A stretch of DNA of 64,000 nt from Lepus europaeus. Its lineage: Eukaryota > Chordata > Mammalia > Lagomorpha > Leporidae. The position numbers and the translations under genes are program-made. Positions 823 through 62,057 of this stretch are shown one piece after another; position 1 is the first letter of the stretch, and the number at the start of each line of letters is the position of its first letter. The DNA lies in contig NC_084850.1 of NCBI RefSeq assembly GCF_033115175.1, positions 18,755,218 to 18,819,217 of the forward strand. The letters are read 5' to 3'. The notes beneath the pieces were generated by a model. The model saw nothing but the letters and a program-made list of their open reading frames with translations, had not been told where the DNA came from and searched no databases.

Positions 823-1120
823 AAAAGCACAGATTATTAAAACTATAATAATATAACATTCTTAACCATTAGTTTCACAAAGGTATAAAACAAAGTTTTA
901 CAAGACACTAATTGTAGCAAAAAATCTTTGAAAATAAAAAAAGTGCTGAAAAGGAATGGAGTTCTATTTTTTAGAAAGCTTTTATTTCAATAAATATAAA
1001 TTTCATAGGTACAGCTTTTGGAATATAGCCGTTCTTCCCCCCATACCCACCCTCCCACCCCCACTTCCATCCCATCTCCTACTCCCTCTCTTATCCCATT
1101 CTTCATTAAGATTCATTTTT

Positions 1121-2175
1121 TTATTTTTTTATTTTTTTAACTTTTATTTAATGAATATAAATTTCCAGTGTACAGCTTATGGATTACAATGGCTTCCCCC
1201 TCCCATTACTTCCCTCCCACCCGCAACCCTCCCCTCTCCCGCTCCCTCTCCCCTTCCATTTGCATCAAGATTCATTTTCAATTCTCTTTATATACAGAAG
1301 ATCAATTTAGTATAACGATTTCAACAGTTTGCACCCACATAGAAACACAAAGTGAAACATACTGTTTGAGTACTAGTTATAGCATTAAATCACAATGTAC
1401 AGCACATTAAGGACAGAGATCCCACATGAGGAGCAAGTGCACAGTGGCTCCTGTTGTTGACCCAACAAATTGACAATCTAGTTTATGGTGCCAGTAACCA
1501 CCCTAGGCTGTCGTCATGAGTTGCCAAGGCTATGGAAGCCTTTTGAGTTTGCCGACTCTGATCATATTTAGACAAGGTCATAAAAGACAGAGTGAGGATA
1601 GTAACCAATGATCCTAAGAGTGGCATTAACCAGGTCTGAACAATTATACAGCATTAAGTGGGGAAGAGGACCGTCAGTACACACAGGTTGGGAGTAGAGC
1701 CATTGGTGGTAGAGTAGAGGTTATGATTACACAGGAATGAGGCCCAAGTACGTTAGACAGGGTCTAGAACAAAGGACAGAGTCATTATTAGAGGAACTAA
1801 GAAAGGTTCTGTCTAAACTACAATTAAGTTTTCTGATTGAGAGGCAAATAGAACCTGATAGAAGGGGCTTGATAATAATCTGTTGGGCTTTAGGCCTTGT
1901 AAGTTAAGAGGCCCAGACCTACCTATCTCTTCACATGGGGTATATCCTAAGGGAGGTGTGAACCTCCTAGGGGAAGGCACTCTGTTGACTTTCATTACTT
2001 GGCTGGGCTGGGAGGAGAGCAGGCCAGGTAAAGGCAGGTGGCATCTCTAACAAGAAATTTACAGTTCTGCCTTCAATGTTGCTGACCCTACTTGACAGAT
2101 CTTAATGGCTCTAAGCTGAAAAGCCCTTCACTCAGCCCAACTTCCAAAGTGACCACTGCAGCTGAGGGTATGGTC
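1121..2175 (-). mobile_element. Composite L1/ERV element, short twin-primed copy
   Basis: A T-rich start near 1121 marks the poly(A) of a minus-strand element. From there to about 2096 it follows the same 3' half as the element at 2398-6664: about 0.5 kb of L1 3'UTR, then the non-L1 block. From about 2097 to 2175 the next piece of that element appears in reverse orientation (compare 2100-2175 with the complement of 3355-3430). This is the signature of twin priming, and the two pieces abut in the parent order. The 13-bp direct repeat AAGATTCATTTTT flanks it (1108-1120 and 2176-2188). Confidence 0.8.
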
Positions 2176-2245
2176 AAGATTCATTTTTAATTATCTTTAT
2201 GTACAAAAGACTAACTCTATACTAAGTAAAGATTTCAACAGTTTG

Positions 2246-2270: not shown

Positions 2271-2399
2271 TATAAAGTACTGTTTGAAGACAAGTTTTAC
2301 TGTTAATTCTCATAGTACAACTCATTAAGGACCGAAGTCCTACATGGGGAGTAAGTGCACAGTGACTCCTGTTATTGATTTAACAATTGACATTATTTT

Positions 2400-2850
2400 T
2401 TTTTAACTTTTATTTAATGAATATAAATTTCCAGTGTACAGCTTATGGATTACAATGGCTTCCCCCTCCCATAACTTCCCTCCCACCCACAACCCTCCCC
2501 TCTCCCGCTCCCTCTCCCCTTCCATTCACATCAAGATTCATTTTCAATTCTCTTTATATACAGAAGATCAATTTAGTATAAAGATTTCAACAGTTTGCAC
2601 CCACATAGAAACACAAAGTGAAACATACTGTTTGAGTACTAGTTATAGCATTAAATCACAATGTACAGCACATTAAGGACAGAGATCCCACATGAGGAGC
2701 AAGTGCACAGTGACTCCTGTTGTTGAACCAACAAATTGACAATCTAGTTTATGGCGCCAGTAACCACCCTAGGCTGTCGTCATGAGTTGCCAAGGCTATG
2801 GAGGCCTTCCAAGTTTGCCGACTCTGATCATATTTAGACAAGGTCATAAA
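2400..2850 (-). other. L1-type 3'UTR end of the composite element
   Basis: This is the only part of the composite's 3' half that matches ordinary L1 copies. It includes the pyrimidine-rich complement of the G-tract (about 2458-2520), the CAGTTTGCACCC block and the GTCATGAGTTGCCAAGGC block. Near 2845-2852 (AAGGTCATAAAAGACAG) the match to canonical L1 3'UTRs ends; those continue with CATAGTCAAAGTGGAAG. The same break occurs near 1579-1585 and 58566-58573 in the other two copies. Confidence 0.8.
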
Positions 2851-3416
2851 AGACAGAGTGAGGATAGTAACCAATGATTCTAAGAGTGGCATTTACCAGG
2901 TTTGAACAATTATACAGCATTAAGTGGGGAAGAGGACCATCAGTACACACAGGTTGGGAGTAGAGCCATTGGTGGTAGAGTAGAGGTTATGATTACAAAG
3001 GAATGGGGCCCAAGTGTGCTAGACAGGGTCTAGAACAAAGGACAGAGTCATTATTAGAGGAGCTAAGAAAGGTGCTGTCTAAGCTACAATTAAGTTTTCT
3101 GATTGAGAGGCAAATAGAACCTGATAGAAGGGGCTTGATAATAATCTGTTGGGCTTTAGGCCTTGTAAATTCAGAGGCCCAGACCTATCTCTTCACATGG
3201 GGTATATCCTAAGGGAGGTGTGAACCTCCTAGGGGAAGGCACTCTGTTGACTTTCATTACTTGGCTGGGCTGGGAGGAGAGCTGGCCAGGTGAAGGTAGG
3301 GGGCATCTCTAACAAGAAATTTACAGTTCTGCCTGCAATGTTGCTGACCCTATTTGACCATACCCTCAGCTGCAGTGGTCACTTTGGAAGTTGGGCTGAG
3401 TGAAGGGCTTTTCAGC

Positions 3417-3728
3417 TTAGAGCCAATAAGATCTGTGGCTCTGACCTGGGCATCCTTCGACTCCAGGGCAGGTCCATTTCCAGTGATCCAACTCTTGGCA
3501 GAGCTGCCAGGGCTTTTCACAAGCTGACTTCTGCTGAAGCCCATGCTTACCACATTGAAAGCCACTGCAGTGGACTGGCCTGTTGGGTCTCCTTGAGGGC
3601 AGATCACTGTACAGATCAGCCATTAATAGGCCTGCCACCCATTGCTTCTGATGCCGAGCTTTCTTTTCCTCCTGGTTTGTGTTAAAGCAGACCAGAGGAT
3701 GCAAGTCAAGGGAGTGCCCATATCCCAT
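3417..3728 (-). pseudogene. Decayed ERV gag (capsid end and nucleocapsid zinc knuckles) inside the composite element
   Basis: A 103-codon frame contains features of a retroviral Gag C-terminus. A charged Q-E-E-K-K-A-R-H-Q-rich stretch (residues 19-29) is followed by an arginine/proline linker and an FQCGK motif (residues 57-61). A knuckle-like series follows, with Cys77, Asp81, His82, Trp83, Lys84, Cys87 and Pro88 (spacing C-x3-DHWK-x2-CP). Two-knuckle Gag of this style is known from several class I endogenous retroviruses. The first knuckle is damaged: spacing and downstream Cys are off, and the other copy (59080-59460) has a different frame here. No other retroviral genes are evident. It is a captured, non-functional fragment carried as 3' non-coding cargo. 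Confidence 0.6.
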
Positions 3729-3869
3729 CTCTAATCTTCGGTGGCCTGAACTACAAGTCTATAGTCACAGGCATGTTCTGTAGTAGTTTTTCTAAGGTAG
3801 ACAATGCCCATGAGGAAAATTATATTCTCACTTTAAAACTTTCTTTCCCTTTGGTCTGAAAGGGAGGTT

Positions 3870-4660
3870 TTTTCTACTTACTGCATACTTCGCTGATGGC
3901 GAAGTGAATCTAGCTATGAGATTATTAGTTAAGTTCTTATTTTGGCTATGCTATTACAGAAAAATGTTAGCCATCTCTTTTATAAGGTCTAAAGATTAAA
4001 TTGTACGTCCTACAGATTCCTTCATAATAGAATTAGTTTCCTACCTTGAAGAGAATAGAGAAATGAAAGAACAAGTTGGGCTTAGAATAGAGAAATGAGG
4101 GAGCAAGTCCTAGATCGCTTGCTGACAATAGCAATATTACATGAATACTTAGCAAACCGTTTCAACCATTAGATAACAACTTAGGAAAACATTTACCAGA
4201 GGGTCCAATGACTTCTATAAATTTTAAGAATCATGTATTTGAAAACACCTCTTAAATATCTAACATGGTGTAGTTTGTTTAGCCAGTAAACTTAAGCACA
4301 ACCATATAAAATGTTTTTAGTTTCTTTCTACCAACAAGTTTAAAACATATGATACACAGATTCAGGTCCCACAAATTAAAATGTATCTTTGATTAATTTT
4401 AGCAGCTTAAATTTATGGACAATCTTATCTATAAGCCATTTAAAATAAAACTCTTAATAAAATTTCCTATGTGGACATACAATATGTACACACATATAAC
4501 ATAGCATAATAGACCAATATAGCAATTTTAATAATAACTTTTAAAATCTTTAACTCTTTTTGTAGATTGCCAATTGATTTGAATTGCTTTTTGTTTTTAG
4601 ATTACTTTAACACATTGCTTTAACAGAGCATCAGAGTTTAATTCTATGGCAAAGAGAAAT
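3870..4660 (-). other. Non-L1 segment replacing ORF2 in the composite element
   Basis: AT-rich sequence with no sizeable frame, lying between the end of the L1 inter-ORF spacer and the gag-like block. The same sequence is present at 60409-62036 in the other large copy, where it is about 845 bp longer. It contains a small perfect inverted repeat (CTTCGCTGATGGCGAAG, near 3888-3904). It could be the untranslated leader or another non-coding portion of the same captured retrovirus, but nothing in it proves that. Confidence 0.6.
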
Positions 4661-4699
4661 TGAGCTTCCTGTGATCTTTTGCTGTGAGGTTTCCTTCCT

Positions 4700-5737
4700 T
4701 TACCTTCTTTCATATTGATGACCATGTTTCTGTGTTTCTGTGTGTAAGACATCTTTAAGCATCTTTTGCAGGGCAGGATGAGTGGCAACAAATTCTTTCA
4801 GTTTCTGTTTGCTATGAAAAGTCTTAATTTCACCTTCATTCACAAATGAGAGCTTTGTAGGATATAATATTCTGGGCTGGCAGTTTTTCTCTCTTAGTAC
4901 CTGGGCTATGTCTCGCCATTCCCTTCTAGCTTGTAGGGTTTCTGGTGAGAAGTCAGCTGTGAGTCTAATTGGAGATCCTCTAAGAGTAATCTGACGTTTC
5001 TCTCTTGCACCTTTTAGAATCTTTTCTTTATGTTTCACTGTGGTGAGTTTGATTACAATGTGTCGTGGTGAGGATCTCTTTTAGTCATGTTTATTAGGGG
5101 TTCTATAAGCTTCCTGTACTAAGATGCCTCTGTCCTTTTCCAAACCTGGGAAATTTTCTGCTAGTATCTCACTAAAAAGGCCTTCTAATCCTTTCTCCCT
5201 CTCCATGCCTTCAGGAACTCCTAGAACCCGAATGTTGGGTTTTTTAATAGTATCCTATAGATTCCCGACAGTATTTTTTAGATTTCTAATTTCTTCTTCT
5301 TTTCTTTGGTTTGCCTGTTTCCTTTCCTGTTCTCTGTCTTCTAATTCCAATATTCTCTCTTCTGCTTCGCCCATTCTGTTTTTAAGGCTCTCTAATGTGT
5401 TTGTCATTTGATCTATTGAGTTCTTCATTTCATTATGGTTTCTTGTCACTATAAGAGTTTCATGTTCTACTAGTTGTTTCATTTCATTTTGATTCCTCCT
5501 TAATATTTCATTTTCACGAGAGAGATGTTCTATCTTGTCCATTAAGGATTTCTGTAGTTCAAGAATTTGTTTTTGAGAACTTCTTAATGTTCTTATCAAT
5601 TTTTTGAGATCTGCTTCTTGTATTTCTTCAATCTCCTCATCTTCATAATCTTGAATTGGGGTGTCTTTTTCATTTGGGGGCGTCATAGTGTCTTCCTTGT
5701 TCTTGTTAGCTTGGTTTTTGCGTTTGTTGTTTGGCAT
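4700..5737 (-). pseudogene. L1 ORF1 (ORF1p) with two nonsense codons
   Basis: ORF1p is the L1 RNA-binding trimer that coats L1 RNA. The frame starts MPNNKRKNQ at 5737 (an in-frame ATG lies 24 nt upstream) and ends HQYERR-stop at 4700, about 345 codons. The acidic N-terminus is followed by a long coiled coil (residues about 40-150, heptads and EMK/NQNE repeats). The RRM-like and C-terminal domains follow (KRQITLRGSPIRLTADFS, RILYPTKLSF). It is uninterrupted apart from stops at 5255-5257 and 5081-5083. Both stops fall where the related copies encode Gln, so each is a single C-to-T change. The C-terminal 112 residues are nearly identical to the ORF1 at 24790-25826, so this copy is young. Confidence 0.9.
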
Positions 5738-6664
5738 GTTGGAGATATTTGGTTTCTTCACTGTGGTGTTTTTTCTTGTTACACTATGGCTCTATATTAA
5801 GTGGACTGTCTGCTTTCAGTGGAGCCTTAGAGGCTTGAGATAAGTGTGGACTGAGAGCTGTGTTTGGTTCCTCAGGGTTGAGGGTGTGTCAAAGATGACA
5901 CTCCCAGGTTAGGTGTGGTAAATCTCTTTCTTTCTTTTTTTGATTCAAAAGGGAAGTAATTCCGCACAGCTGAACGTAATTGGAGGTAGTTAGCAGGCAA
6001 ATGATATACCCACAGGAGCCACAGATTGGAAGCTCTTTCCCAAGGACCACACAGGGACTCTCTGCTGCCCTCAGTGTGGGCACCAGTTCTCCTGCAGTCT
6101 CCCACTGGGTTGCCAAGTTAGATGCTAATCTCCTGTTATTTCACCCCTCCCCCCAGAGTCAGGTTTTTCTGCTAGCTCAGGGCCGGTGCAGACCTGAGGT
6201 CACCCTGCTTATGACGTATGTCCAAAATGGTGCCTGCTCTTTATCTTGCTCGCCTTTGAGGGGTGAGCGGAGAGAGAGAAGATAGAAACTCGTGTCCGTA
6301 TCGGTCACTTTTTTTTTTCCCTCTCTCTCTTCTAGTTAGCCTGGTGAACTTTTCCCCACGGAGTTTCAAGCTTTGTTCCCTCTAGCCTCCTCTTTCCGCT
6401 TGCCCGCTGGTGTCTTGGGCTATTTTGGTTCGGCTCACCTCGCGTTCCAGCGCTGATGTGTTGAGTCTGCCGCTGGTGTCCCAAACTAGGGCTTCCACGC
6501 TCTCCACGCAGGTCCACTGTGAATCACTAGTTCCGGAAGAGTTTCTGCTGCTGTTTCTTCCCCTACTCTTCCTTGACCCTGCAGTATCTCCACTTTTATT
6601 AACCTGTGTGTCTTGCTGAACTATCAATGTGCTCCCTTCCTATTCCGCCATCTTGAAAGACTCC
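5738..6664 (-). promoter_or_regulatory. L1 5'UTR/internal promoter with YY1-type start
   Basis: About 0.93 kb of leader before ORF1. The first bases on the minus strand carry CAAGATGGCGG (complement at about 6645-6655), which matches the YY1 site that sets transcription start in human L1. The leader is related along its length to the 5'UTR at 54580-55628. It is unlike the first 360 bp of the leader at 25827-26627. Confidence 0.75.
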
Positions 6665-6968
6665 TGACATTATTATTTATGACATCAGTGATCACCTGAG
6701 GCTCTTGACATGAGCTGCCAAGGCTATGGAAGCCTTTTGAGTCCACAAACTCCGTTGTTAAACAGGGCCATAAGCAAAGTGGAAGTTCTTTCCTCCCTTC
6801 AGAGAAAGGTACCTCCTTCTCTGATGGCCCCTTCTTTCCACCAGGATCTCACTCACAGAGCTCTTTCATGTAGGTCATTTTTTGCCAGAGTGTCTTGGCT
6901 TTCCATGCCTGAAATACTCTCATAGTCTTTATAGCCAGACCTGAATGCCTTAAAGGCTGATGAAAGAA

Positions 6969-7284: not shown

Positions 7285-7792
7285 TTTTTTTTTTTTTTGT
7301 GGTTTTCAAGGTTTTATTTAAAAACAAATAAAATGCGCACCCAAACCGCCTACTCATTTTCTTCACTGCGCAGCCTGGCATTGGGGTTGGTGACCCTGAT
7401 GGCCAGCTGGGCCGCTCTCTCCACAATGGCCTTGCAGTTCTTGGAGGAGACGTTGTGAGCAATCTCTGCACAGTAGGATTTGTTGCCCATCAGCAGCACC
7501 TCCAGCTCCTTGACGTTGTGGACCAGGAACTTCCGGAAGCCGCTGGGCAGCATGTGCTTGGTCTTCTTGTTGCTCCCGTAACCAATGTTGGGCATCAAGA
7601 TCTGGCCCATGAATCTTCTCCGCACCCTCTTGTCAATACCTCTGGGTTTCCACCAGTTACGCTTAATCTTGACATAACAGTCCAACTGGTGGTAGATGAA
7701 CTTGGTCCTCTTTTTGACGATCTTGGTCTTCATCAGGGTGGCCATGGTGCCTCGAGGGGAAGGCAGCCACCTCCAGAGGCAATGCCGAGGAA
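7285..7792 (-). pseudogene. RPL32: RPL32 processed retrocopy, frame open
   Basis: The minus strand encodes a 131-residue protein (7745-7350) that follows ribosomal protein L32, normally 135 residues, from MATL to RLRSEENE with no intron. It is four codons short, from in-frame losses near the N-terminus (in the RPLV stretch and one Lys of RTKK). About eight substitutions are visible, several Arg to Cys/Trp as expected from CpG decay. Upstream it keeps the native leader, including the pyrimidine-rich TOP-like start near 7780-7792. Downstream are a 3'UTR with AATAAA-type signal and a poly(A) (T-run 7285-7298). The imperfect repeats AAGAGGGCAATATCC (7270-7284) and AAGAAGGGCAATACC (7793-7807) flank it. 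It is a reverse-transcribed mRNA copy, probably non-functional despite the open frame. Confidence 0.95.
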
Positions 7793-58098: not shown

Positions 58099-59079
58099 AA
58101 AATTTTTATTTATTTATTTTTTTCAATTTTTTTTTTTACTTAATGAATATAAATTTCCAGTGTACACCTTATGGATTACAATGGCTTCCCCCTCCCATAA
58201 CTTCCCTCCCACCCACAATCCTCCCCTCTCCCGCTCCCTCTCCCCTTCCATTTGCATCAAGATTCATTTTCAATTCTCTTTATATACAGAAGATCAATTT
58301 AGTATAACGATTTCAACAGTTTGCACCCACATAGAAACACAAAGTGAAACATACTGTTTGAGTACTAGTTATAGCATTAAATCACAATGTACAGCACATT
58401 AAGGACAGAGATCCCACATGAGGAGCAAGTGCACAGTGGCTCCTATTGTTGACCCAACAAATTGACAATCTAGTTTATGGCACCAGTAACCACCCTAGGC
58501 TGTCGTCATGAGTTGCCAAGGCTATGGAAGACTTCCAAGTTTGCCAACTCTGATCATATTTAGACAAGGTCATAAAAGACAGAGTGAGGATAGTAACCAA
58601 TGATCCTAAGAGTGGCATTTACCAGGTATGAACAATTATACAGCATTAAGTGGGGAAGAGGACCATCAGTACACACAGGTTGGGAGTAGAGCCATTGGTG
58701 GTAGAGTAGAGGTTATGATTACAAAGGAATGAGGCCCAAGTATGCTAGACAGGGTCTAGAACAAAGGACAGAGTCATTACTAGAGGAGCTAAGAAAGGTG
58801 CTGTCTAAGCTACAATTAAGTTTTCTGATTGAGAGGCAAATAGAACCTGACAGAAGGGGCTTGATAATAATCTGGTGGGCTTTAGGCCTTGTAAGTGAAG
58901 AGGCCCAGACCTATCTATCTCTTCACATGGGGTCCATCCTAAGGGAGGTGTGAACCTCCTAGGGGAAGGCACTCTGTTGACTCTCATTACTTGGCTGGCC
59001 TGGGAGGAGAGCTGGCCAGGTAAAGGCAGGTGGCATCTCTAACAAGAAATTTACAGTTCTGCCTGCAATGTTGCTGACC

Positions 59080-59460
59080 CTACTTGACCATCCCCTCAGC
59101 TGCAGTGGTCACTTTGGAAGTTGGGCTGAGTGAAGGGCTTTTCAGCTTAGAGCCAATAAGATCTGTGGCTCTGACCTGGGCATCCTTCGACTCCAGGGCA
59201 GGTCCATTTCCAGTGATCCAACTCTTGGCAGAGCTGCCAGGGCTCTTCACAAGCTGACTTCTGCTGAAGCTCTCAGGCTTACCACTTTGAAAGCCACTGC
59301 AGTGGACTGGCCTGTTGGGTCTCCTTGAGGGCAGATCACTGTACAGATCAGCCATTAATAGGCCTGCCACCCATTGCTTCTGATGCCGAGCTTTCTTTTC
59401 CTCCTGGTTTGTGTTAAAGCAGACCAGAGGATGCAAGTCAAGGGAGTGCCCGTGACCCAT
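59080..59460 (-). pseudogene. Decayed ERV gag nucleocapsid block (second copy)
   Basis: A 126-codon frame equals the block at 3417-3728. It keeps the charged capsid-end stretch. In the first knuckle it has GKP-x2-FSRS, the spacing expected of a CCHC box, but two Cys and the His are substituted. The second knuckle lies in another frame. The indel between the two copies (about 59265-59285) explains why each preserves a different half. Confidence 0.6.
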
Positions 59461-59606
59461 CTCTAATCTTCGGTGGCCTGAACTACAAGTCTATAGTCAC
59501 AGGCGTGTTCTGTAGTAGTTTTTCTAAGGTAGACAATGCCCATGAGGAAAATTATATTCTCACTTTAAAACTTCCTTTCCCTTTGGTCTGAAAGGAAGGT
59601 TTTTAC

Positions 59607-60368
59607 AAGAAACTGTGATAGTGACGAGAAATCATAATGAAATGAAGAATTCAATAGATCAAATAACAAACACATTAGCCTTAAAAACAGAATGGGCGAA
59701 GCAGAAGAGAGAATATCAGACTTAGAAGACAGAGAACAGGAAAGGAAACAATCAAACCAAAAAAAAAAGAAGAAGAAATCAGAAATCTAAAAAATATTGT
59801 CGGGAATCTACAGGATACTATTAAAAAACCCAACATTCGGTTTCTAGGAGTTCCTGAAGGCATGGAGAGGGAGAAAGGATTAGAAGGCATTTTCAGTGAC
59901 ACACTAGCAGAAAATTTCCCAGGTTTGGAGAAGGACAGAGGCATCTTAGTACAGGAAGCTTATAGAACCCCTAATAAACATGACCAAAAGAGATCCTCAC
60001 CACGACACGTTGTAATCAAACTCACCACAGTGAAACATAAAGAAAAGATCCTAAAATGTGCAAGAGAGAAACGCCAGATTACTCTTAGAGGATCTCCAAT
60101 TAGACTCACAGCAGACTTCTCATCAGAAACCCTACAAGCTAGAAGGGAATGGCGAGACATAGCCCAGGTACTAAGAGAGAAAAACTGCCAGCCCAGAATA
60201 TTATATCCTGCAAAGCTCTCATTTGTGAATGAAGGTGAAATTAAGACTTTTCATAGCAAACAGAAACTGAAAGAATTTGTTGCCACTCATCCTGCCCTGC
60301 AAAAGATGCTTAAAGATGTGTTACACACAGAAACACAGAAACATGGTCATCAATATGAAAGAAGGTAA
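59607..60368 (+). pseudogene. L1 ORF1, 5'-truncated, in the inverted half
   Basis: Begins inside the coiled coil (ETVIVTRNHNEMKNS-like region near 59610-59650). The frame shifts in an A-rich run at 59758-59775. From MEREKGLEG (59862) it runs open for 168 codons to HQYERR-stop at 60368, so the RNA-binding and C-terminal domains are intact here. At the two positions where the copy at 4700-5737 has stops, this one encodes Gln. Confidence 0.9.
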
Positions 60369-60408
60369 AGGAAGGAAACCTCACAGCAAAAGATCACAGG
60401 AAGCTCAA

Positions 60409-62036
60409 TTTCTCTTTGACATAGAATTAAACTCTGATGCTCTGTTAAAGCAATGTGTTAAAGTAATCTATTATGTTCTCTTGATGTCTGTTAAATTCTA
60501 ATTGTTCAAAAACAGCTGAATTTTTTATTAAGAGCTAAGGGTTATTTAAATATGTGCTTATTTTCAAAGATTTGAGTAATCACCTTGTAACAATGATCAA
60601 ATTTGGTCTATGTTATGTCATGATTTTAAGGAATCTTATTTCAACCAGATATTTTGGATTTTGAGCCCTCTTGGCATTCTTGACAGGCATTCAAAAAATC
60701 AAAGTTTCAAACAATCTGGTCTCTAAAATTTCCAGTAAATCCTGGACTTTGGTTTTTCCAGTTTGGGCCCAACTGAAAAAATCGAAGGACCTATGTCTCT
60801 CATCTTATAGAGACACCAACTAATCAGTCTATTTGGATTATATTAGAAGTACTGTCAAGATGTGATGTGGTACCAAACTTTAAGTTTCTATAATGGAAAA
60901 TGCTATTAATACAAATGTTTGAGAATTAAAAAGTCTAATGATCTTGTGTTACTAGACATGAAAGTTATCTTAATGAGAAAGCCCCAGAGGCCTAAAGGGT
61001 TAAATACTTGTAAAATCCTACATGTGCTTTCAAAACTACTGTGAAGTAAGCAAGTGCCTCTTGTTGGTTGATGAGTTTATAATTTTAAACATGACGACTT
61101 AAAGTCTTTTGTCATCCACAGTTATATGAGATTTGCTGCTCATAAAACTAAAGCGTTCTTGGTTCTGTGTTTAGCTGTCCTCCTATAGGTTCCTATGGAC
61201 TTTTTCCAGCCACTTCTATTGTATTCAGTGCTTTGGGATGGCTCTGTAAACAGATGAAGCCAATAATGTATTAACAGTACCAACTGAGAGAAAGTATGGT
61301 TAACTGAGGTTACTAAAAACAAAAAGCAATTCAAATCAATTGGCAATCTACAAAAAGAGTTAAAGATTTTAAAAGCTATTATTGAAATTGCTATATTGGT
61401 CTATTATGTTATGTTATATGTGTGTACATATTGTATGTCCACATGGGGAAATTTTATTAAGAGTTTTATTTTAAATGGCTTATAGATAAGATTGTCCATA
61501 AATTTAAGCTGCTAAAATCAATCAGAGATACATTTTAATTTGTGGGACCTGAATCTGTGTATCATATGTTTTAAACTTGTTGGTAGAAAGAAACTAAAAA
61601 CATTTCATATGGTTGTGCTTAAATTTACTGGTTAAACAAACTACACCATGTTAGATATTTAAGAGGTGTTTTCAAATACATGATTCTTAAAATTTATAGA
61701 AGGCATTGGACCTTCTGGTAGATGTTTTCTTAAGTTGTTATCTAATGGTTGAAACGGTTTGCTAAGTATTCATGTGATATTGCTATTGTCAGCAAGCGAT
61801 CTAGGACTTGCTCCCTCATTTCTCTATTCTAAGCCCAACTTGTTCTTTCATTTCTCTATTCTTCTCAAGGTAGGAAACTAATTCTATTATAAAGGAATCT
61901 GTAGGACGCACAATTTAATCTTTAGACCTTATAAAAGAGATGGCTAACATTTTTCTGTAATAGCATAGCCAAAATAAGAACTTAAATAATAATCTCATAG
62001 CTAGATTCTCTTCGCCATCAGCGAAGTATACAGTAA
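60409..62036 (+). other. Non-L1 segment of the composite element, long form
   Basis: Follows the inter-ORF spacer at GATCACAGGAAGCTCAA. Positions 60409-60469 and 61315-62036 match 4660-4601 and 4600-3880 (complement). About 845 bp (60470-61314) has no counterpart in the other large copy. It is AT-rich with no frame longer than about 70 codons, and I recognise no family. It is plausibly retroviral non-coding sequence in view of the gag-like block next to it in the parent order. Confidence 0.6.
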
Positions 62037-62057
62037 GTAAAATTTTTATTTATTTAT

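What the first reader, a model, noticed from the sequence alone, without database searches (positions are those of the whole stretch)
2398..6664. A full-length, ORF1-only composite retrotransposon: L1 5' half joined to an ERV-containing 3' half
The element is bounded by a 10-bp target duplication and has a complete L1 5'UTR, ORF1 and L1 poly(A) end, but no ORF2. About 1.8 kb of non-L1 sequence replaces it, part of which encodes a degraded gag nucleocapsid. HAL1 elements are known ORF1-only L1 derivatives. One carrying captured retroviral sequence is, as far as I know, not a standard description. It implies trans-mobilisation by L1 ORF2p with its own ORF1p kept in cis.
Basis: partly seen in the sequence, partly recalled or inferred. 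Interest (0 to 1): 0.9.

Follow-up and report, generated by a model that had tools for sequence, protein, structure and literature searches.

The report
ORF1-only L1 retrotransposon with foreign insert
A jumping gene that kept one of the two LINE-1 proteins but carries unrelated DNA in place of the copying enzyme has spread in this animal's genome, apparently by borrowing the enzyme of ordinary LINE-1 elements.

Summary
The element at 2398-6664 (minus strand) is an L1 5'UTR + ORF1, cut 28 nt before where ORF2 begins in a related L1, then 1,811 bp of non-L1 DNA, then the last 451 bp of an L1 3'UTR. It has a 10-bp target duplication. Two more copies lie in the window. In the host genome, 40 of 40 scored hits across the 5' joint (of 1,321 candidates) are >=99% identical. 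Each of 20 loci read holds both joints and the whole foreign block; 12 are full length, none has ORF2. A second form has 842 bp more foreign DNA. ORF1 is uninterrupted in 11 of 30 fully covered copies. Variants shared by three or more copies carry fewer amino-acid changes than singletons (32:25 v 185:57, p=0.002) and no stops, as expected if ORF1 stayed functional after ORF2 was lost; long forms alone show no significant effect. This is HAL1-like: ORF1p probably in cis, ORF2p in trans. The retroviral gag claim is suggested by a zinc-knuckle match but not established. Repbase and Dfam could not be consulted.

The parts
2388..2397 (.). target-site duplication, 3' side copy (TGACATTATT)
   Evidence: second copy at 6665-6674
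6665..6674 (.). target-site duplication, 5' side copy
2398..2848 (-). last 451 bp of an L1 3'UTR with A-tail; element 3' end
   Evidence: the eight L1 3' ends printed share this start point of similarity, with a different and mutually similar upstream sequence
2849..4659 (-). non-L1 ('foreign') block, 1,811 bp; G+C 0.30 in 3801-4659, 0.46-0.50 in 2849-3800
   Evidence: complete in 20 of 20 genome loci read
3468..3569 (-). two degraded zinc-knuckle-like motifs (possible gag nucleocapsid remnant)
   Evidence: score 5 v at most 4 in 200 controls; negative; weak in-register alignment to one ERV knuckle
4660..4699 (-). remnant of the L1 inter-ORF spacer; the joint lies 28 nt before the ORF2 ATG position of a related L1
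   Evidence: related L1, 24690-24830
4700..5737 (-). L1 ORF1, 345 codons + stop; in this copy stops at 5257 and 5083
5738..6664 (-). L1 5'UTR beginning GGAGTCTTTCAAGATGGCGG, taken as complete
   Evidence: 12 of 20 genome copies begin at el 6-11
1132..2177 (-). copy A, 5'-truncated and 5'-inverted; duplication AAGATTCATTTTT at 1108-1120 and 2176-2188
58127..62042 (-). copy C, 5'-inverted at 59604/59605, long form; 19-bp duplication at 58099-58117 and 62039-62057
60471..61312 (+). 842 bp of further foreign sequence inside copy C (long form), between el 2067 and el 2065

Best explanation
It is a member of a young, multi-copy, HAL1-like L1 derivative family. An L1 5'UTR promoter and ORF1 are fused to 1.8-2.65 kb of non-L1 DNA and an L1 3' end. 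Shown: fixed joints, target duplications, A-tails, 5' truncation and 5' inversion, and absence of ORF2 in every copy read. Indicated by a site-class test: constraint on ORF1 after the fusion. Inferred: RNA made from the L1 promoter is bound by its own ORF1p in cis, and ordinary L1s of the same genome supply ORF2p in trans for target-primed reverse transcription. Inferred origin: an L1 5' half came to lie upstream of host DNA (perhaps with an old ERV scrap) that ended in a 5'-truncated L1; a transcript through all three was retrotransposed. The short form (this copy) then probably arose from the long form by an 842-bp deletion at a CTA microhomology.
For: The same joints occur in the window copies that reach them: 5' joint in this element and copy C, 3' joint in all three. 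Genome search across the 5' joint: 40 of 40 scored hits >=99%, 1,321 candidates. Of 20 loci read, 20 hold both joints and the whole foreign block, 19 reach the element's 3' end, 12 are full length at the 5' end, 8 are 5'-truncated. A target duplication was found in 15 of 20 (at least two, L012 and L014, are weak) against 14 of 191 in mismatched flanks. Joined flanks restore an older L1 3'UTR. 842-bp piece: 40 of 40 scored hits at 98% or better, 1,454 candidates; 12 of 12 loci read, copy C among them, have it at the same place. In an ORF1 tree nine L1s with ORF2 form one group (support 0.98) and all 43 composite copies another. Variants in at least 3 of 49 copies are 32:25 (nonsynonymous or stop: synonymous) v singletons 185:57, p=0.002; stops 0 v 12. 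ORF1 open in 11 of 30 fully covered copies.
Against: Trans-mobilisation and cis ORF1p are not shown by any assay. Tests on the two window copies alone were not significant for the terminal branches (18:13, p=0.07); the strong internal-branch result (2:10) may predate loss of ORF2. Among long-form copies alone the shared-versus-singleton test is not significant (8:7 v 74:43, p=0.32), and in all copies two doubletons are stops. The node joining the composite copies has printed support of only 0.43 with a single outgroup, and the long form is not basal, so the long-to-short direction rests on structure. Copies were taken from the best matches and are biased to young ones.
Confidence: 0.85

Rival explanations
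1. Same family, but ORF1 is only a passenger; the RNA is mobilised by ORF1p and ORF2p both supplied in trans, as for SINE-like RNAs.
For: ORF1 is interrupted in 19 of 30 fully covered copies. Nonsynonymous divergence between two copies (0.028) is close to that of the foreign block (0.028-0.030). Long forms alone show no significant constraint.
Against: Variants shared by three or more copies in ORF1 show fewer amino-acid changes and no stops, and 11 of 30 copies are open.
Confidence: 0.25
2. The non-L1 block is not retroviral at all: ordinary host DNA captured by chance, with zinc-knuckle-like letters by coincidence.
For: No retroviral Pfam, PDB or protein hit; nucleotide matches to ERV pieces of the same genome were only 14-28 bp long and near chance (best E 0.005 against the first nine; none at E 0.01 against all 18); tblastx best score equals the control median; the A+T-rich half is full of stops.
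Against: The double-knuckle scan scores 5 here and never above 4 in 200 controls; the second knuckle aligns in register with an ERV knuckle.
Confidence: 0.4
3. Independent ORF2 deletions in ordinary L1s, or one composite spread by segmental duplication.
For: L1s with ORF2 and a similar ORF1 are common in the genome.
Against: Identical joints at the loci read and different target duplications with A-tails at most of them.
Confidence: 0.01

Closest known systems
HAL1 (half-L1) families, e.g. HAL1/HAL1b, guinea pig HAL1-1_Cpo series, marmoset HAL1-1C_Cja
   Same: L1 5' part with ORF1 only, A-tail, target duplications, ORF2p needed in trans. For guinea pig HAL1, long-kept ORF1 coding capacity is reported and cis ORF1p plus trans ORF2p inferred (passage of PMC3627910; also passages of PMC5753468; PMC5322556; table passage of PMC3183009).
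   Different: Here 1.8-2.65 kb of non-L1 DNA, possibly with an ERV remnant, sits between ORF1 and the L1 3' end. I saw no such block described in the passages read; the primary HAL1 paper (Bao and Jurka 2010) was not held.
L1 with ORF2 of the same genome (e.g. window about 18.4-26.0 kb)
   Same: ORF1 region (91% over el 770-2005) and the last part of the 3'UTR.
   Different: Has ORF2; lacks the foreign block.
SVA/LAVA-type composite retrotransposons
   Same: Composite of unrelated repeats moved by L1 in trans (start of the abstract of PMC7353768, seen in the listing).
   Different: No ORF1 is kept there (recalled); here L1 promoter, ORF1 and L1 tail are kept.

Membership tests
HAL1 (ORF1-only L1 derivative) | L1 5' part with ORF1, related to L1s of the same genome | tested here: met
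HAL1 (ORF1-only L1 derivative) | No ORF2 | tested here: met
   0 of 20 loci with ORF2 between the joints
HAL1 (ORF1-only L1 derivative) | Multi-copy family with a shared structure, A-tail and target duplications | tested here: met
   (duplication found in 15 of 20)
HAL1 (ORF1-only L1 derivative) | ORF1 coding capacity kept by selection after loss of ORF2 | tested here: met
   p=0.002 for all 49 copies and 0.02 for short forms; not significant in long forms alone (p=0.32), so met for the pooled set only
HAL1 (ORF1-only L1 derivative) | Match to a Repbase/Dfam HAL1 consensus | not testable with these tools
   no repeat library on hand
Endogenous retrovirus (foreign block) | Recognisable gag/pro/pol domains | tested here: inconclusive
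   negative; suggestive for one knuckle pair
Endogenous retrovirus (foreign block) | LTRs and primer-binding site | not tested
   no dedicated scan was made
SVA-like composite | No protein-coding ORF of L1 (recalled definition; VNTR and Alu-like parts were not scanned for) | tested here: not met
   ORF1 present, and open in 11 of 30 copies

The most novel reading that the evidence does not exclude
An undescribed ORF1-only L1 lineage that captured 2.65 kb including a retroviral gag remnant, in which the captured RNA segment itself helps (for instance packaging, export or RNP formation) while ORF1p works in cis and ORF2p in trans.
Probability: 0.12. Interest if true: 0.75.

Novelty: new variant of a known kind. 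Interest (0 to 1): 0.5.

Why it matters
L1 proteins prefer their own RNA (recalled), so how a family without ORF2 thrives is a real question. A young ORF1-only family beside young ORF2-bearing L1s in one genome gives a natural test of whether ORF1p is needed in cis. It also shows that an L1 derivative with 1.8-2.65 kb of unrelated sequence in place of ORF2 can spread.

Tried and rejected
Considered and rejected: independent ORF2 deletions, segmental duplication, and assembly chimera (same joints at the loci read, different target duplications). Viral-contig scans for the joint, the gag-like piece and ORF1 found nothing usable. The phage collection gave nothing. No Rfam match at gathering score and no tRNA in the window. 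Protein-database search of the gag-like and protease-like pieces: no candidate shared three words. The 311,105 bases then held contained no relative of the foreign block under 90% identity. Nine ERV protease-centred pieces, none with a canonical knuckle, gave no convincing match (best piece E 0.016, best nucleotide match 21 bp, E 0.005). Nine more taken downstream of gag p30, seven with a canonical knuckle, gave one in-register alignment, E 0.006 by sum statistics; its bit score equals the control median or less, and some controls scored far higher (up to 197 bits). One search prints 14 open ORF1s, but its alignment dropped inserted bases; three of those (L017, L022, L042) carry insertions, so I use 11 of 30. 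A joint-pattern count over the genome did not complete, so copy number is given only as first-look candidates. Papers opened for passages but not used further: PMC4161310, PMC7586669.

Full report
Anatomy. On the minus strand the element runs from 6664 (5' end) to 2398 (A-tail), flanked by TGACATTATT at 2388-2397 and 6665-6674. Coordinates 'el' count from the 5' end. el 1-927 is an L1 5'UTR beginning GGAGTCTTTCAAGATGGCGG; el 928-1965 is ORF1 (345 codons), with two in-frame stops in this copy and clear Pfam matches of its C-terminal piece to the L1 ORF1 RBD-like and dsRBD-like domains. Similarity to L1 stops at el 2005. A related L1 in the window reads GGAAGCTCAA, then 28 nt, then the ORF2 ATG; the element leaves it exactly at GGAAGCTCAA. 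el 2006-3816 matches no L1 of the window. From el 3817 the sequence is an L1 3'UTR again; the eight L1 3' ends printed show the same start of similarity, with a different and mutually similar sequence before it.

It is a real insertion. Joining the flanks with one copy of the duplication gives 370 bp that align end to end with other L1 3'UTRs in the window. So this copy, like copy A at 1132-2177, landed in an older L1 3' end.

It is a family. Copy A (1132-2177) and copy C (58127-62042) share the joints within their reach. Both carry 5' inversions (twin priming) and have their own duplications of 13 and 19 bp. In the assembly that holds the window (2.93 Gb), a 301-bp probe across the 5' joint gave 40 of 40 scored matches at 99% or better, out of 1,321 first-look candidates. 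One of the 40 is the window element. I read 20 others at 7.3-7.4 kb and the ORF1 stretch of 16 more; three were not read. Of the 20, all 20 hold both joints and the 1,811-bp block from end to end; 19 reach the element's 3' end, and L014 stops at el 4112 beside another L1 3' end; 12 start at el 6-11 and 8 are 5'-truncated. Target duplications were found in 15 of 20, at least two of them weak, against 14 of 191 for mismatched flanks. Mean pairwise distance in the foreign block of 21 copies is 0.0215, so these copies are young; they were picked as best matches.

Two forms. Copy C has 842 bp more between el 2067 and 2065. As a probe that piece gave 40 of 40 scored matches at 98% or better out of 1,454 candidates, and 12 of 12 loci read, copy C among them, have it at the same place. 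Another locus holds an older 5'-inverted long copy and a copy with only its first 194 bp and a different deletion. The piece shows no A-tail and no target duplication and is bounded by CTA, so the short form is most simply a deletion of the long one. The ORF1 tree, weakly resolved inside the family, does not show the long form as basal, which leaves the direction open.

ORF1 after loss of ORF2. ORF1 has no insertion, deletion or stop in 11 of 30 copies covering it fully. In 49 copies, singletons (mostly post-insertion) are 185 nonsynonymous or stop to 57 synonymous, a fraction of 0.76 against the neutral expectation of 0.72 from the non-coding parts. Doubletons are 26:15, two of them stops. 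Variants in three or more copies are 32:25, with no stops (p=0.002). Short forms alone give p=0.02 and long forms alone p=0.32. In the first 38 copies, variants in three or more gave p=0.011, non-CpG ones p=0.020, and variants in two or more p=0.047 (counts, tests). Since these copies share the fusion, constraint after loss of ORF2 is indicated, though gene conversion from L1s is not excluded. The branch leading to this copy and copy C before their split is 2:10 (p=0.0001), but it may include time before the fusion; their terminal branches are 18:13 (p=0.07).

Partner. The closest ORF2-bearing L1 in the window has relatives elsewhere: a probe across its inter-ORF region gave 40 of 40 scored matches at 98% or better, out of 1,256 candidates. 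In 5 of the 10 read, the window's own L1 among them, the 301 codons read from the ORF2 ATG are open. In the ORF1 tree nine of these L1s form one group (support 0.98) beside all 43 composite copies placed; the node of the composite copies has printed support 0.43. Such L1s are plausible suppliers of ORF2p; which ones did so is not known. The C-terminal ORF1 piece has 681 database relatives at E<=0.001; the best is 92% identical, the next 66%.

The foreign block. Its A+T-rich part (el 2006-2864) is unidentified. Pfam at E<=10, PDB and the protein database show nothing. A scan that knew only the CX2CX4HX4C spacing picked this stretch with 5 of 8 positions, while 200 control stretches reached at most 4. 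Against 18 ERV pieces of the same genome, seven of them with a canonical knuckle, tblastx at E<=0.1 gave two short hits, both to one ERV. One aligns the second knuckle in register, with E 0.006 by sum statistics, but the better of the two scores, 24.4 bits, equals the median of 60 controls. By eye, a protease-like LLEM follows about 194 nt after the second knuckle; six of the ERV pieces have 180-183 nt between knuckle and protease motif. I rate retroviral origin of this part at about 0.6 and the rest of the block as unknown. Whether the gag-like frame is kept was not tested: 14 of 20 copies have no stop in it and 6 have, and in copy C the frame is shifted.

Literature. Ten searches with HAL1, half-L1, rabbit, lagomorph, composite or chimeric terms listed no title or abstract start describing this structure; only listings were seen, searches returned nothing relevant, and the library holds open-licence papers only. 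The primary HAL1 paper was not held. In PMC3183009 (table passage) the rabbit families under 1% divergence are three LTR families and no HAL1, while guinea pig and marmoset list HAL1. PMC3627910 (passage) reports long-kept ORF1 coding in guinea pig HAL1 and infers cis ORF1p with trans ORF2p, the same logic as here. Verdict: a new variant of a known kind, with the reservation that a repeat library may already hold it.

Noticed in passing
window 7350-7745 (-): Processed-pseudogene-like copy of ribosomal protein L32 (Pfam Ribosomal_L32e, 7.2e-50).
   Followed up: no
window 979-1119, 2174-2392, 6665-6736: One older L1 3' end was hit twice by this family (copies at 1132 and 2398), about 220 bp apart.
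   Followed up: yes
L025 with L045 and L046: Nest of at least three copies of the family, one inserted into the 842-bp piece of an older 5'-inverted long-form copy, and one with only the first 194 bp of that piece.
   Followed up: partly
window 2979-3209 (+): A 77-codon open frame on the opposite strand of the foreign block, partly kept in the copy at 1737-1907; no Pfam match.
   Followed up: no
genome G000: Many ERV protease and gag p30 matches over the family cut-offs (150 scored of 2,013 and 150 of 1,454 candidates).
   Followed up: no
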